DNA from: Roseospira visakhapatnamensis
GTDB taxonomy: Bacteria > Pseudomonadota > Alphaproteobacteria > Rhodospirillales > Rhodospirillaceae
DNA: 64,000 nt
Direction of reading: 5' to 3'
Assembly: GCF_014197915.1 (NCBI RefSeq)
Contig: NZ_JACIGK010000011.1
Span: forward strand, 1-64,000
The notes under the pieces are model-generated. The model had not been told where the DNA came from. It made no database searches and saw only the letters and a program-made list of their open reading frames with translations. Positions 2,100 through 64,000 of this stretch are shown piece after piece (the first letter of the stretch is position 1; each line of letters opens with the position of its first letter). Made by a program: the position numbers and the translations under genes.

Positions 2100-3311
2100 T
2101 CACGCACTCAGGCTCTGGAGGTCCCCGTCGCCGAGGCGCCGGGGAAACACGCCCACCTGCCGGACCCAGCAGCGCGGGCCGACAGCGCCGGACGCGGTCC
2201 CGCCCAAGGTCAGGGTGGTGACCGTCGGCACGGTCGCGTCGCCGTCGGTCGCCAGCGCGGATCCCCCCAGGGCGAGGGCGACGTCGTCGTCGGCATAGGC
2301 GGCGGCGGCGCGGACCTCGGCGCCGCCGGTCACGCCATCGCGGCTGAGCGCGGCCACCGTCGCGCCGCCGTCGACGACGGTGAAGGCGGCTGAGCCGGCC
2401 TGTGCGTCGACGCTCAGGGTCATGCGGGCGTCGGCGGTCCCGTCGCTCAGCTCCACCAGCGGCGCGGCCAGGCCGGCGGGCACGGCGCCGCGCGCCATCA
2501 GGGTCCCCTGGTGGGGGTGGACGTCACCGGCGCCGAGGGTCATGCGCAGCCGGTCGGCCGCCCGGGTCGCCGGCGCCGTGGTAGTGGCGATGAGGGAGGA
2601 CGGCGCGGCCCCGGCCTCCAGTTGCACCCCCCACAGGTGGGCGCCGCTGACGCCGTCGCCGGTGTAGCTGGACACGGCACCGGTGTCGCGCAGCCGCAGG
2701 TGCACCGGCGAGAGCGCGGTGCCGGTGGCCGTCGCCGAGAGGGCGCAGCGAACCCAGCCGTCGGTGAAGACCTCGATGGTCGGCGCGGGATCGCCCTCGG
2801 TGGCGCCGATGCTGCCGCCGCCCAGGTCGAACACCGCCGACTGGACCACGCCAAAGGCCGTCGAGGGCAGCACCAGCTGCAGGCGCTCGCGGCCGTTGGC
2901 CTTGGCGAACACCGACAGGGCGTAGCGCTGCCCGGCGGTGAACGACAGGGACTCCTGGAACAGCGTGTGGACGGCGGTCGCGGCGGTTTCCGTCAGCGTG
3001 CCGGCAAGGCTCACGCCATCGGGCGCCAGGACCGCCCTGGCGGTCACGGTGGCGTCGCCGGTCAGCCAGGGCGCCTGGGTCAGGACCTGGGAGAACCGCA
3101 CCTGGTTGGTGCGAGCCTCCTCCACCAGCCAGCCGCGATACACCCCGGTGTCGGGCGCGTAGTCGTGGCGGAGCACATGGGCGGACACCGTCTCCACCCG
3201 ACCCAGGGCGTTGACGCGCGTGGCCTCGGACGCGCGCGTGACGTGCAACCCCGAGGGCATGACGTCGGGGCGGGCCAGCAGGTGAAGCGTGGGATAGATC
3301 ATCGTGGTCAT
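2100..3311 (-). CDS. Phage spike/fibre protein with concanavalin-like domain (paralogue 2)
   Basis: A 403-residue receptor-binding or head-spike type protein. The central part has the pattern of phage lectin-like spike domains: a sample-naming segment (EEARTNQVRFSQVLTQAPW), a dated-event segment (APDGVSLAGTLTETAATAVH), then NGRERLQLVLPSTAFGVVQ and the closing GDGVSGAHLWGVQLE. The C-terminal part (about 270-403) is a second beta-rich region ending WVRQVGVFPRRLGDGDLQSL, typical of LamG-like modules. Start chosen at MTTMIYPTL, which follows GAGGA at 8 bases; it overlaps the preceding gene's stop (ATGA). It is a paralogue of the gene immediately upstream and shares near-identical DNA with it. Likely virion surface protein; ligand unknown. 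Confidence 0.75.
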   Translation of the reverse strand: MTTMIYPTLHLLARPDVMPSGLHVTRASEATRVNALGRVETVSAHVLRHDYAPDTGVYRGWLVEEARTNQVRFSQVLTQAPWLTGDATVTARAVLAPDGVSLAGTLTETAATAVHTLFQESLSFTAGQRYALSVFAKANGRERLQLVLPSTAFGVVQSAVFDLGGGSIGATEGDPAPTIEVFTDGWVRCALSATATGTALSPVHLRLRDTGAVSSYTGDGVSGAHLWGVQLEAGAAPSSLIATTTAPATRAADRLRMTLGAGDVHPHQGTLMARGAVPAGLAAPLVELSDGTADARMTLSVDAQAGSAAFTVVDGGATVAALSRDGVTGGAEVRAAAAYADDDVALALGGSALATDGDATVPTVTTLTLGGTASGAVGPRCWVRQVGVFPRRLGDGDLQSLSA

Positions 3312-20819: not shown

Positions 20820-21395
20820 ATGGACGGCGCGATCACCTTTCACCCCCTGACCCCGGATCGCTTCGCCGATCTGGAGTCCCTGTTCGGCACCAGCGCGACC
20901 ACGCGAAACTGCTGGTGCGTGTACTGGCGGCAGACCTGGAAGGAGTGGAACGCGGGCTGTGGCGACGACCGCCGCGAGGCGTTGCGCGCGCGGGTCGGGG
21001 CCGGTCCGCCGCCCGGCATCCTGGCCTACCGCGACGGCGAGGCCATCGGCTGGGTCCAGGTGACGCCGCGCGCCGACGTGCCCCGGTTCAACCGGGCACG
21101 CTCGGCGAAGCCCAGCCCCGCCGAGACCGATCTCGACGCCGTGTGGGCCATCTCCTGCTTCTTCCTGCGCAAGGACGCGCGCGGGCAGGGTCTGATGACC
21201 GCGTTGACGCGGGAGGCCTGCGCCTTCGCCGCCCGCCAGGGCGCCCAGGCCGTGGAGGCCGCGCCCGTCACCCCCCACCGGCCGCTGACGTGGGACGATG
21301 GCTATGTGGGGATCGCCTCGGCGCTGGAGCGCGCCGGCTTCACCCTGGTCGAGAAACGCTCCGAGCGGCGCAGCCTCCTCCGCTGGGTGCCGTGA
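20820..21395 (+). CDS. GNAT family N-acetyltransferase
   Basis: 191 residues. N-terminal TRNCWCVYWRQTWKEWNAG is typical of a GNAT subgroup with a Cys/Trp-rich opening; YRDGEAIGWVQVTPR and the acetyl-CoA-binding segment FFLRKDARGQGLMTALTREA (about 117-136) follow, then GYVGIASALERAGFTLVEK near the end. Substrate unknown. It starts 13 bp after proA and so probably belongs to the obgE-proB-proA transcript; in many alphaproteobacteria nadD would follow here instead. The ribosome-binding site is weak (GGGGGG). Confidence 0.85.
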   Translation: MDGAITFHPLTPDRFADLESLFGTSATTRNCWCVYWRQTWKEWNAGCGDDRREALRARVGAGPPPGILAYRDGEAIGWVQVTPRADVPRFNRARSAKPSPAETDLDAVWAISCFFLRKDARGQGLMTALTREACAFAARQGAQAVEAAPVTPHRPLTWDDGYVGIASALERAGFTLVEKRSERRSLLRWVP

Positions 21396-61279: not shown

Positions 61280-61389
61280 GTCTGGCCCCTTCGGCGTCTG
61301 TCCGGCACGGGTGCACGCCGAACCCCCGGGTGAGCGCGATCGTGTTCACACACCTTTTTCCCATTGGCGGCCTTTGCCGAGGATGATGC

Positions 61390-61514
61390 GGGGGCGACGG
61401 CCCCAGGACCCCCGTTTGGGAGGAGACCTCCCAAGCCCTCCTTTTTCTTTCCGGAAGAAGAACTGGGGGACTGGGGGCTGTGCCCCCAGGACAAAACCGG
61501 GCGCCAGCCCGGTT
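61390..61514 (+). repeat. Series of GC hairpins after the EamA gene
   Basis: Three perfect 8-bp stems in sequence: TTGGGAGG/CCTCCCAA (61416-61434), followed shortly by TTTTT (61442-61446) and thus terminator-like; CTGGGGGC/GCCCCCAG (61471-61489); AACCGGGC/GCCCGGTT (61495-61514). A GGGGC/GCCCC dyad precedes them at 61391-61404. The remainder of 61280-61857 has no gene I can support. Confidence 0.65.
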
Positions 61515-61658
61515 ATACTTCGGTGGCCTCAATTACATCGACACAAAAAAGTGTGAATCGGATAGGGGCAAACGGACTGGTTCAGCCTGATCGCGCGTGA
61601 TCACGGACCGGCCGGGGATTCGGCACACACCGACTCCGCTCAGTCCGTCGGTCCCATT

Positions 61659-61706
61659 GCCGGCGCCGCTCGGCGGATGAGTCACACTCGTCCGCCGCTG
61701 GTATCA
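61659..61706. repeat. Dispersed 48-bp hairpin repeat, copy B
   Basis: Hairpin GGCGGATGAGT-CAC-ACTCGTCCGCC (one G-T wobble). It is the inverted counterpart of 56183-56230 with 4 differences, lying 225 bp upstream of the cas4-cas1 start. Confidence 0.85.
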
Positions 61707-61857
61707 GTTGACGCCATTGGCCTGGCGAGCACCACTGCCTACACCCCATGGCCGCATAAACACACCTCTCCGTCTCTTGCGTTGTGGGGTGTCGGGGACG
61801 AGTATGACGTGTTTCGGGTCGGACCAGACACGCCTTGCCCCCCAAGGAGACCCCGTC

Positions 61858-61914
61858 ATGCCGCTGACCCACGCCGACCGCGTCGAGGCCGTCACCCACG
61901 CTGAGGCCCTGTAG
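61858..61914 (+). CDS. Possible 18-residue leader peptide before cas4-cas1
   Basis: ATG at 61858 is preceded by AAGGAG at an 8-9 base spacing, a better ribosome site than that of cas4-cas1 itself. The peptide MPLTHADRVEAVTHAEAL ends at TAG 61912-61914, 16 bases before the cas4-cas1 ATG. A leader or translational coupler is possible; there is no independent support. Confidence 0.35.
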   Translation: MPLTHADRVEAVTHAEAL

Positions 61915-61930: not shown

Positions 61931-63658
61931 ATGACCGACCGCCCCGATCCCAACCGCGAGCCCGAGCTTCCGTTGCCGGCCCCGCCAGCGCCGGAGGGAG
62001 CGGCCCTGGTGCCGGTGCGGATGGTCAGTGAGTATGTCTATTGTCCGCGTGTTGCCTGGCTGATGTGGGTCGATGGGGCCTGGACCGACACCGCCGACAC
62101 CGAGGAGGGGCGCCAGGTTCACAAACGGGTGGACGCGGGTGGCGGCACGCTGCCCGATGCGCCACCGGACGAGGACGACACCGAGGACATTCACGCCCGC
62201 TCGGTGGCTCTGACGTCGGAGCGCCTGGGCATCACCGGCGTGCTGGATCTGGTGGAGGGGGACGGCGGCCGCGTCAGCCCCGTGGACACCAAGCGCGGCA
62301 AGCGCCCGCATGTCGCCCTCGGCGCCTACGACCCCGAACGGGTGCAGGTCTGCCTGCAGGGTCTGCTGCTGGAGGAGCACGGCTACCGCTGTCACGAGGG
62401 CTTTTTATACTACCGCGCCAGCCGCGAGCGGGTCCGGGTTCCCTTCGACGACGCCTTGCGACAGGCGGCCCTGCACGCGGTCCATGGACTGCGTTTGGCG
62501 GCGGCACAGGCCCGACCGCCGCCACCCCTGATCGACAGCCCCAAATGCCCCCGCTGCGCCCTGGTGGGGATCTGCCTGCCCGACGAAATCGGTCACGCTC
62601 TGGGCACGGCGCCCGCGCCGCGTCCACTGGCGGCCGCGCGGCCCGACGCCCTGCCGCTGATCGTGCAGGCCGGCCACGGCAAGGTCGGCAAGTCGGGCGG
62701 GCAGCTTGTCGTCACGCTCGACGACGCGGCCCCGGTCAAGGCGCGCCTGCCCGAGGTCTCACAGCTTGTGGTGTTCGGCAACGTCTCGGTCACGGCGCCG
62801 GCCCTGCACGAGATGATGCGCCGCGAGATCCCCGTCTCCTGGCACAGCCACGGCGGCTGGTTCCTAGGCCACACGGTGGGGCTGGGCCATCGCACTGTGG
62901 CGGCCCGCGAGGCGCAGTACCGATGCGCGTTCGACCCCGGCTGGTCGCTGCGGTTCGCGCGCGGCGCGGTGGCGGCGAAGATCCGCAATGCCCGCACCTT
63001 GCTGCGCCGCAACCGTCGCGACACGCATCCACCCGACGCCGCGACCGAGACTCTCCGTGCTTTGAAGCGCTTGGCGGGAGACGCCGGACAGGCACACGAT
63101 ACCGCCACGTTGTTGGGCATTGAGGGGGCCGCGGCCGCCGCCTACTTCGGGGCCTTTCCGCTGATGCTGAAAGAGGGCGGACCGGTCGCCTTCGACTTCC
63201 GCACCCGCAACCGTCGCCCGCCCACCGATCCGGTGAATGCGTTGCTGTCCTTTGCCTATGCCTTGCTGGTGCGGACGTGGCACGTCGCCCTGTCGGCCGT
63301 GGGATTGGACCCGTACCGGGGGTTCTACCACACCGTCCGCCACGGCCGCCCGGCCCTCGCCCTGGACATGATGGAACCCGACCGTCCCTTGATCGCCGAA
63401 TCGGCCGTGCTGACGGTCATCAACAATGGCGAGGTCGCGCCCGGCGACTTCGTCCACGCGGCCGGCAGCTGCGCCATGGCCCCGGCGGCCCGCAAGGCCC
63501 TGATCGCCGCCTTCGAACGCCGCCTGGAGCAGGACCTGACCCACCCCGTGTTCGGCTATCAGATCAGCTACCGCCGCCTGATCGAGGTCCAGGCACGCCT
63601 GCTCTGCCGCCACCTGCACGGGGAGATCGACACCTTCCCCTGGGTGACACCGCGATAG
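61931..63658 (+). CDS. cas4-cas1: CRISPR-associated Cas4-Cas1 fusion protein
   Basis: 575 residues. Cas4 part (about 25-225): iron-sulphur Cys38 (YVYCPR) with Cys206, Cys209 and Cys215 (SPKCPRCALVGIC); RecB-type nuclease residues His64, Asp106 (GVLDLVE), Asp119-x-Lys121 (PVDTKRGK) and Gln143. Cas1 part (about 240-575): LIVQAGHGKVGKSGGQLVVT, VSVTAPALHEMMRREIPVSW; metal ligands Glu398 (LLGIEGAAAAAYF), His467 (GFYHTVRHGRPALALD), Asp479 and Glu482. Processes and integrates new spacers with Cas2. Such fusions are known from type I-G (former I-U) and type V-B loci. All catalytic residues are intact. Start ATG 61931 has only a weak AAGG ahead. Confidence 0.95.
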   Translation: MTDRPDPNREPELPLPAPPAPEGAALVPVRMVSEYVYCPRVAWLMWVDGAWTDTADTEEGRQVHKRVDAGGGTLPDAPPDEDDTEDIHARSVALTSERLGITGVLDLVEGDGGRVSPVDTKRGKRPHVALGAYDPERVQVCLQGLLLEEHGYRCHEGFLYYRASRERVRVPFDDALRQAALHAVHGLRLAAAQARPPPPLIDSPKCPRCALVGICLPDEIGHALGTAPAPRPLAAARPDALPLIVQAGHGKVGKSGGQLVVTLDDAAPVKARLPEVSQLVVFGNVSVTAPALHEMMRREIPVSWHSHGGWFLGHTVGLGHRTVAAREAQYRCAFDPGWSLRFARGAVAAKIRNARTLLRRNRRDTHPPDAATETLRALKRLAGDAGQAHDTATLLGIEGAAAAAYFGAFPLMLKEGGPVAFDFRTRNRRPPTDPVNALLSFAYALLVRTWHVALSAVGLDPYRGFYHTVRHGRPALALDMMEPDRPLIAESAVLTVINNGEVAPGDFVHAAGSCAMAPAARKALIAAFERRLEQDLTHPVFGYQISYRRLIEVQARLLCRHLHGEIDTFPWVTPR

Positions 63659-63663
63659 AGAAG

Positions 63664-63975
63664 ATGCGTCCGATGCCGACCGCGACTGACGAGCGTCTCT
63701 ACATTGTCGCCTACGACATCGCCGACCAGAAACGCTGGCGCCGGGTGTGGACGGTGATGAACGGATATGGGGAATGGCTGCAACTCTCCCTCTTCCAGTG
63801 CCGGCTGTCGCGCAAACGCCTGGTGCACCTGCGCGGGGCGCTTTCGGAGGCCATCCAAGACGGCGCCGATCACGTGCTGATCCTCGACCTGGGCCCGGCG
63901 GACACGGTCAAGCCCCGCATCGAGAGTCTGGGCAAGTCTGTCGCCGTGGTGGAGCGCAAGCCCGTCATCGTGTAA
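63664..63975 (+). CDS. cas2: CRISPR-associated endoribonuclease/integration subunit Cas2
   Basis: 103 residues from MRPMPTATDERLYIVAYDIA. Ferredoxin-fold Cas2: the metal-binding Asp in YIVAYDIADQKRWRRVWTVM, then GEWLQLSLFQCRLSRKRLVH and a C-terminal HVLILDLGPADTVKPRIESL with VVERKPVIV. Structural core of the Cas1-Cas2 integrase. It begins 5 bp after the cas4-cas1 stop; a second ATG at 63673 would remove three residues. Only 25 bases remain after its stop, so a CRISPR array, if present, is outside the window. Confidence 0.94.
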   Translation: MRPMPTATDERLYIVAYDIADQKRWRRVWTVMNGYGEWLQLSLFQCRLSRKRLVHLRGALSEAIQDGADHVLILDLGPADTVKPRIESLGKSVAVVERKPVIV

Positions 63976-64000
63976 TCTTCCGATGCGTCATCGTCCCGAG

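What the first reader, a model, noticed from the sequence alone, without database searches (positions are those of the whole stretch)
61931..63975. Cas4-Cas1/Cas2 adaptation module with no effector genes on its visible side
Cas4-Cas1 fusions occur in type I-G and V-B systems, where effector genes normally precede the adaptation genes. Here the upstream neighbour is an EamA transporter 650 bp away and nothing effector-like lies between. Either the effector lies to the right of cas2 (an inverted gene order), or this is a stand-alone adaptation locus, or a new association. All Cas4 and Cas1 catalytic residues are present, so the module looks functional.
Basis: partly seen in the sequence, partly recalled or inferred. 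Interest (0 to 1): 0.75.

Follow-up and report, generated by a model that had tools for sequence, protein, structure and literature searches.

The report
CRISPR operon with effector genes deleted
A bacterial immune locus has lost its target-cutting genes through one visible deletion but keeps the genes and DNA array that record new infections, while matching cutting genes sit elsewhere in the same genome, so recording and cutting are probably done from separate places.

Summary
In detail: an intact Cas4-Cas1 fusion and Cas2 stand without effector genes. The contig runs on beyond the window. A 57-repeat CRISPR array follows cas2, and no relative of the genome's own effector proteins was found in C11:1-101,000. 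Upstream lies a deletion scar: window 61858-61914 is a 19-codon chimera (stop included), the first 13 codons of csb1 joined to the last codons of csb3. Beside an uncultured Rhodospira relative, 6,627 bp (csb1-csb2-cas3-csb3) have gone, with a 6-nt microhomology at the joint. So this is a type I-G operon whose interference genes were deleted, not an inverted order and not a new association. The assembly has one cas1. It keeps two type I-G effector operons and a III-B effector set on other contigs, without array or adaptation genes beside them, and a second array whose leader is homologous and follows a cas2 tail. Probably one adaptation module serves both arrays and the effectors work in trans (inferred). 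Related genomes show other dismantled I-G loci. Split and in-trans CRISPR loci are known in kind; the readable scar and the complementary losses are the new part.

The parts
61711..61834 (+). Region homologous to the stretch just upstream of csb1 in a complete B-type operon (kept promoter region, inferred)
   Evidence: 79.2% identity over 125 columns with L049:2985-3108; csb1 of L049 starts at 3218
61858..61914 (+). Deletion scar: chimeric micro-ORF MPLTHADRVEAVTHAEAL*, csb1 start joined to csb3 end; junction inside 61892-61898 (microhomology TCACCC)
   Evidence: 61842-61898 matches the L049 csb1 start in 54 of 57 bases; 61892-61914 matches the L049 csb3 end in 20 of 23; 6,627 bp missing beside L049, 6,591 beside L034
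61931..63658 (+). cas4-cas1 fusion (Cas4g/Cas1g), 575 aa
   Evidence: NF049935 765 bits, cut-off 560; 7mi4 E 2.8e-196; only Cas1 found in the assembly
63673..63975 (+). cas2 (Cas2g), 100 aa
   Evidence: PADLOC Cas2g 104 bits; TIGR01573 30.3 bits, cut-off 24.5
63976..64000 (+). Start of the CRISPR leader, which continues past the window to the array at contig positions 64233-68407
   Evidence: leader 257 nt, 57 repeats of 36 nt, 56 spacers of 35-41 nt

Best explanation
The locus is the adaptation half of a type I-G CRISPR operon. Shown: an operon of the order csb1-csb2-cas3-csb3-cas4/1-cas2-array lost csb1 to csb3; the start of csb1 is joined to the end of csb3 at a shared TCACCC, and the upstream region, cas4/1, cas2, leader and array stayed. 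Shown: this is the only cas1 found in the assembly, and the genome carries a second array plus two I-G effector operons and a III-B effector set, with no array or adaptation gene found beside them. Inferred: the loss was one event. Inferred: Cas4/1-Cas2 goes on inserting spacers into its own array and, through the homologous leader, into the second array. Csb2 of the surviving I-G operons cuts the transcripts of both arrays, and the effectors on the other contigs use these guides in trans. The genome thus has one shared recorder and several cutters. I put about 0.95 on the deletion origin and about 0.65 on working function in trans.
For: Scar: csb1 start and csb3 end fused at 61858-61914, with the csb1-upstream region kept. 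No copy of the deleted genes was found elsewhere that could make this a misassembly: only two csb1 in the genome, at C19 and C16, and the C16 one is 35-39% identical to those of L034 and L049 over the aligned pieces and lacks the MPLTHAD start. One Cas1 by protein and by family model. A-type effector operon on C19: cas3 749 bits, csx17 564, csb1 127, csb2 174, each over its cut-off. B-type effector operon on C16, over cut-off for csb1, csb2, cas3 and NF049934. No CRISPR-like repeats beside either in the stretches tested, C19:72001-88537 and C16:5001-25000 (one two-copy pair on C16). Cmr2, Cmr3, Cmr4 and Cmr6-Cmr1 on C16 over cut-off. Second array on C42: 56 identical repeats and one degenerate one, 7 of 36 positions different from the C11 repeat, preceded by a cas2 C-terminal remnant (20 aa, 65% identical to Rhodospira trueperi Cas2, E 0.001). 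C11 and C42 leaders: 162 of 222 aligned bases identical, z 11.7 against 500 shuffles in blocks of two bases. One spacer of each array (A19, B36) shares an exact 18-nt core, score 19 against a shuffled maximum of 13 in 3 rounds. Effector flavour does not follow the Cas4/1 tree: 11 label changes, shuffled mean 10.6, 159 of 200 shuffles as low.
Against: Working in trans is not shown by any experiment. The genome is a 99-contig draft, 96.67% complete, so a further cas1 or array may be missing; arrays with unrelated repeats were not searched genome-wide. No spacer had a convincing target: best E 0.03 in phages, and only matches of up to 23 nt in the 0.9 Mb held, chance-level apart from spacer-to-spacer matches. 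The C42 repeat differs in loop and 5' end from the C11 repeat, so a shared machinery might not accept both. Arrays also persist beside broken cas genes in Roseospira marina, so persistence of an array does not prove use.
Confidence: 0.77

Rival explanations
1. The locus is a dying relic: effectors were deleted, the array is no longer used, and cas4/1-cas2 only have not yet decayed.
For: Dismantled I-G loci recur in the genus: Roseospira marina has one locus with the csx17 start joined to the end of csb1 and another with the cas3 start joined to csb3 and cas4/1 gone; Rhodospira trueperi has a cas4/1 without effector matches in the 10 kb before it and the 10 kb after it.
Against: All 57 repeats of C11 are identical, both ORFs are full length with aligned catalytic residues, and full-length effector genes without arrays remain in the genome.
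Confidence: 0.2
2. A self-sufficient recording locus, where spacers are stored for a purpose other than interference.
For: Adaptation genes and array are kept together without effector genes; Rhodospira trueperi shows a like layout.
Against: I-G effectors exist elsewhere in both genomes, and the locus arose by deletion. No second function was looked for among the neighbours.
Confidence: 0.02
3. A type V-B adaptation module with a distant Cas12.
Against: The I-G model passes its cut-off by 205 bits and the type V Cas1 model reaches 78.6 of 300; the scar is csb1/csb3, both I-G genes.
Confidence: 0.01

Closest known systems
Type I-G (formerly I-U) CRISPR-Cas with the order csb1-csb2-cas3-csb3-cas4/1-cas2 (Roseospira navarrensis L034, uncultured Rhodospira L049)
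   Same: Cas4/1 88% identical; L034 has the same repeat family and leader blocks; L049 has the homologous upstream region
   Different: The four interference genes are deleted here, leaving an 18-residue fusion
Type I-G locus with the order cas3-csx17-csb1-csb2-cas4/1-cas2 (Roseospirillum parvum L037; Roseospira marina L036, there with a deletion)
   Same: The C19 effector operon is collinear with it; cas3 and csb2 78-79% identical to R. marina
   Different: On C19 no cas4/1, cas2 or array follows; a degenerate repeat end lies 21 bases after csb2
Adaptation in trans between co-resident systems, Flavobacterium columnare VI-B and II-C (PMC8092290, abstract and section list read)
   Same: A locus without adaptation genes gains spacers through the machinery of another locus
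   Different: There shown by gene deletion and between types; here inferred, mostly within one subtype
Stand-alone RT-containing adaptation modules beside an array, and effector shuffling at fixed adaptation genes (PMC6452270, passages read)
   Same: Adaptation module and array without effectors; effector modules exchanged
   Different: There type III with reverse transcriptase; here I-G with a deletion scar that shows what was lost

Membership tests
Type I-G CRISPR-Cas | Cas4-Cas1 fusion of the Cas4g/Cas1g family | tested here: met
   NF049935 765 bits, cut-off 560
Type I-G CRISPR-Cas | cas2 and an array with leader directly after it | tested here: met
   Cas2g; array 257 nt after cas2
Type I-G CRISPR-Cas | csb2 (said to typify I-G in PMC9638904) and csb1, cas3, cas8g in the same locus | tested here: not met
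   No relative of the genome's own effector proteins in C11:1-101,000 (tblastn); the csb1 and csx17 models match only C19 and C16; only the csb1/csb3 scar remains
Type I-G CRISPR-Cas | The same genes somewhere in the genome | tested here: met
   C19 and C16 operons over cut-off
Type I-G CRISPR-Cas | Csb2 processes these repeats; effector cuts targets | not testable with these tools
   needs biochemistry
Type V-B CRISPR-Cas | Cas12b effector | not tested
   no Cas12 search was made
Type V-B CRISPR-Cas | Cas1 of the type V family | tested here: not met
   TIGR04329 78.6 bits, cut-off 300
Adaptation hub serving several loci in trans | One cas1, more than one array, homologous leaders | tested here: met
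   (draft assembly)
Adaptation hub serving several loci in trans | New spacers inserted in the distant array by this Cas1 | not testable with these tools
   needs infection experiments

The most novel reading that the evidence does not exclude
A one-recorder, many-cutters immune system caught while modules are being exchanged: reciprocal deletions in several I-G loci of one genome left one adaptation module, two arrays and three array-less effectors (two I-G flavours and III-B), all depending on each other in trans. In this genus interference genes are pruned from I-G loci again and again, often in frame, while arrays and often the recording genes are kept.
Probability: 0.4. Interest if true: 0.66.

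Novelty: new variant of a known kind. Interest (0 to 1): 0.5.

Why it matters
Exchange of adaptation and effector modules is often inferred from trees and gene orders (PMC6452270, passages read); here one step of it can be read from a scar of 57 bases. The genome makes testable whether one Cas4/1-Cas2 can supply two arrays and whether two I-G effector flavours and a III-B effector can share guides. It also warns that an adaptation locus without effectors need not be a new system: the missing part may be a deletion, with effectors on another contig.

Tried and rejected
Effector to the right of cas2: not found on reading to C11:101,000 and in a tblastn check of the whole stretch. Type V-B: disfavoured by family scores. 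Idea that C19's left neighbour TldD marks the site of the R. marina I-G locus: not supported, the TldD gene lies on another contig in R. marina. Empty-site tests with the TldD and EamA genes: in the four genomes each that I read, only the gene itself matched apart from one 118-base match, so they say nothing. Spacers aimed at cas genes as the cause of the deletion (known for E. coli I-F orphan arrays, PMC8616872, passage read): no convincing match in the held loci. Phage targets: none below E 0.03. That C19's right end joins C16's left end in a tandem of tRNA-Gly islands: plausible, but no overlap was seen by eye in the printed contig ends and nothing tested it. Paper searches on split I-G loci and loss of interference genes: no title or abstract start in the listings describes this case; two searches returned no paper; most listed papers were not opened.

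Full report
What is there. Window 61931-63658 encodes a 575-aa Cas4-Cas1 fusion and 63673-63975 encodes Cas2. The family models call them Cas4g/Cas1g and Cas2g, that is type I-G. The best match among solved structures is the Cas4/Cas1 fusion 7mi4 (E 2.8e-196), and the nuclease, iron-sulphur and integrase residues line up. The roles of these residues are recalled, not tested.

Beyond the window. The window is G000:C11:1-64000 of a 151,502-bp contig in a 4.49-Mb, 99-contig genome, 96.67% complete. After cas2 comes a 257-nt leader and a CRISPR array, C11:64233-68407, with 57 identical 36-nt repeats and 56 spacers of 35-41 nt. In C11:1-101,000 the 13 query proteins from this genome match only cas4-1 and cas2 themselves (tblastn, E up to 1e-3). 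Effectors unlike these would be missed by that test; the ORF listing was only read by eye. C11 beyond 101,000 was not read, but the csb1 and csx17 models found nothing on C11.

The scar. Uncultured Rhodospira L049 and Roseospira navarrensis L034 have the order csb1-csb2-cas3-csb3-cas4/1-cas2, with Cas4/1 88% identical. 'csb3' is my label for the gene in that place; in L049 and on C16 it matches NF049934, 'Cas3-extension family' (158 and 201 bits, cut-off 65). In the window, 61711-61834 matches the stretch upstream of csb1 in L049 (79.2%). 61842-61898 matches the csb1 start of L049 in 54 of 57 bases. From the shared TCACCC (61892-61897) on, the sequence is the end of csb3 (20 of 23 bases to the stop) and then the cas4/1 start. 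The result is a small ORF, MPLTHADRVEAVTHAEAL*. Beside L049, 6,627 bp are missing; beside L034, 6,591. So all four interference genes are gone, most simply by one event. A misassembly is unlikely, because no other L049-like csb1 was found: only the two in C19 and C16, which are different.

The rest of the system. C19 (L056) carries cas3, csx17, csb1 and csb2, each over cut-off, with no direct repeats found near and no cas1. Twenty-one bases after csb2 lies a degenerate repeat end: 14 of 17 positions (my count), the only match with up to 3 mismatches on either strand of L056, and none in four other stretches of 77 kb in all. R. marina L036 has cas4/1, cas2 and an array in just this place, so C19 probably lost that part. 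C16 (L057) carries csb1, csb2, cas3 and an NF049934 gene. This island lies between an exact 46-nt copy of the 3' half of tRNA-Gly, with a phage-integrase-family gene beside it, and the intact tRNA-Gly. To the left of it C16 carries Cmr2, Cmr3, Cmr4 and a Cmr6-Cmr1 fusion, all over cut-off, and a protein whose best match, TIGR02221, is below its cut-off; an ORF in the place of Cmr5 was not scanned. C42 (L027) carries an array of 56 identical repeats and one degenerate terminal repeat, with no match to the 13 query proteins in 20 kb but a 20-residue cas2 tail before its leader, found with Cas2 queries at a looser setting (E 0.001 at best).

One recorder. Cas1 is found once in the genome, by protein and by family model. 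The C11 and C42 leaders are homologous (162 of 222 aligned bases, z 11.7 against 500 shuffles), and the same blocks occur in four relatives. No spacer is shared exactly, but spacers A19 and B36 share 18 exact bases, so both arrays probably sampled related elements.

Relatives. Of 22 named loci, 21 hold at least one effector match within the DNA held and one, Rhodospira trueperi L035, holds none; several are cut by contig ends, and the collection may leave out very near genomes. In R. trueperi the one csb1 found lies on another contig, with csb2 and cas3 over cut-off and no CRISPR-like repeats. The region before its cas4/1 resembles the operon upstream region of the window (score 26, maximum of 200 shuffles 19), though the same test with the L049 upstream region stayed within its shuffles (17 against a maximum of 18). 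R. marina has no csb1 by the model, only an end piece. Its first locus has one ORF that joins the csx17 start to the csb1 end. Its second has one ORF from the cas3 start to the csb3 end, and lacks cas4/1 and the first 17 codons of cas2. That second contig starts inside csb2, so a csb1 may lie in the gap. All 6 genus genomes, this one included, have a cas1 over cut-off (1 to 3 matches each; this one and R. trueperi have 1), and 5 of 6 have the repeat core.

Tree. Cas4/1 of 21 of the 22 named loci (L053, whose match is in two pieces, dropped) plus the window: the four labels (A, B, C, split) need 11 changes, shuffled mean 10.6, 159 of 200 shuffles as low. Labels rest on tblastn hits; L044 rests on csb2 alone, C means neither csx17 nor csb3 hits. 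The tool warns of long branches. The window pairs with R. marina (support 88/81) inside a well supported six-row clade. So closely related adaptation modules stand beside different effectors.

Mechanism, steps shown and inferred. Shown: loss of the interference genes with a csb1/csb3 joint; survival of adaptation genes, leader and array; presence of array-less effectors and of a second array. Inferred: Cas4/1-Cas2 adds spacers to C11 and C42; Csb2 of C19 and C16 processes both transcripts; I-G and possibly III-B effectors act in trans. Precedents: in-trans adaptation in Flavobacterium columnare (PMC8092290, abstract and section list read); redundancy of III-B and I-F in Marinomonas (PMC5576922, search listing only); effector shuffling at fixed adaptation genes and stand-alone RT-containing modules (PMC6452270, passages read); III-G systems thought to recruit crRNAs in trans (PMC12669027, passages read). 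PMC9638904 (passages read) gives Csb2 as the crRNA-cutting enzyme of I-G and notes 5 genes between csb2 and cas4-1 in Thioalkalivibrio.

Verdict. It is not a new type. It is a type I-G adaptation locus made by a deletion that can be read base by base, in a genome where the system has come apart into several pieces that probably still work together.

I added (tblastn of the whole stretch, family scans of the Cmr, integrase and neighbour genes). They firmed up names and corrected small counts. The odds of the main readings are unchanged; one rival went from 0.03 to 0.02.

Noticed in passing
window 61659-61709: A repeated stretch of about 50 bases just left of the kept operon region; one search lists 37 further places in the genome at 86-98% identity (40 matches were scored of 319 candidates, so there may be more).
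   Followed up: no
window 61336-61565: An intergenic stretch with two further copies at 78-79% identity on contigs C22 and C19.
   Followed up: no
L057:4194-17514 (C16): Island with integrase between an exact 46-nt copy of the tRNA-Gly 3' half and the intact tRNA-Gly, carrying a B-type I-G effector operon. C19 has a similar 42-nt copy (93%) and an integrase 51% identical, right of its effector operon. R. marina has its first I-G locus beside the same tRNA-Gly.
   Followed up: partly
L094 (Roseospira marina, second I-G locus): One ORF from the cas3 start to the csb3 end; cas4/1 and the first 17 codons of cas2 missing; array of 21 repeats kept.
   Followed up: partly
L027 spacers B4 and B33; window 21257-21272: Two spacers of the C42 array share a 19-base core with each other and 16 bases with this place in the window; the latter may be chance.
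   Followed up: no
L057:6197-10042 (C16): Between integrase and effector operon: an AAA_14/DUF4143 protein, a 37-kD nucleoid-associated-family protein and one protein without a Pfam match.
   Followed up: partly
L095 and L096 (congeners): Further arrays with the same repeat family; L096 has a matching leader by eye. No cas gene match in the stretches held. L095 is a 3.7-kb contig and may be a piece of the L034 array.
   Followed up: partly
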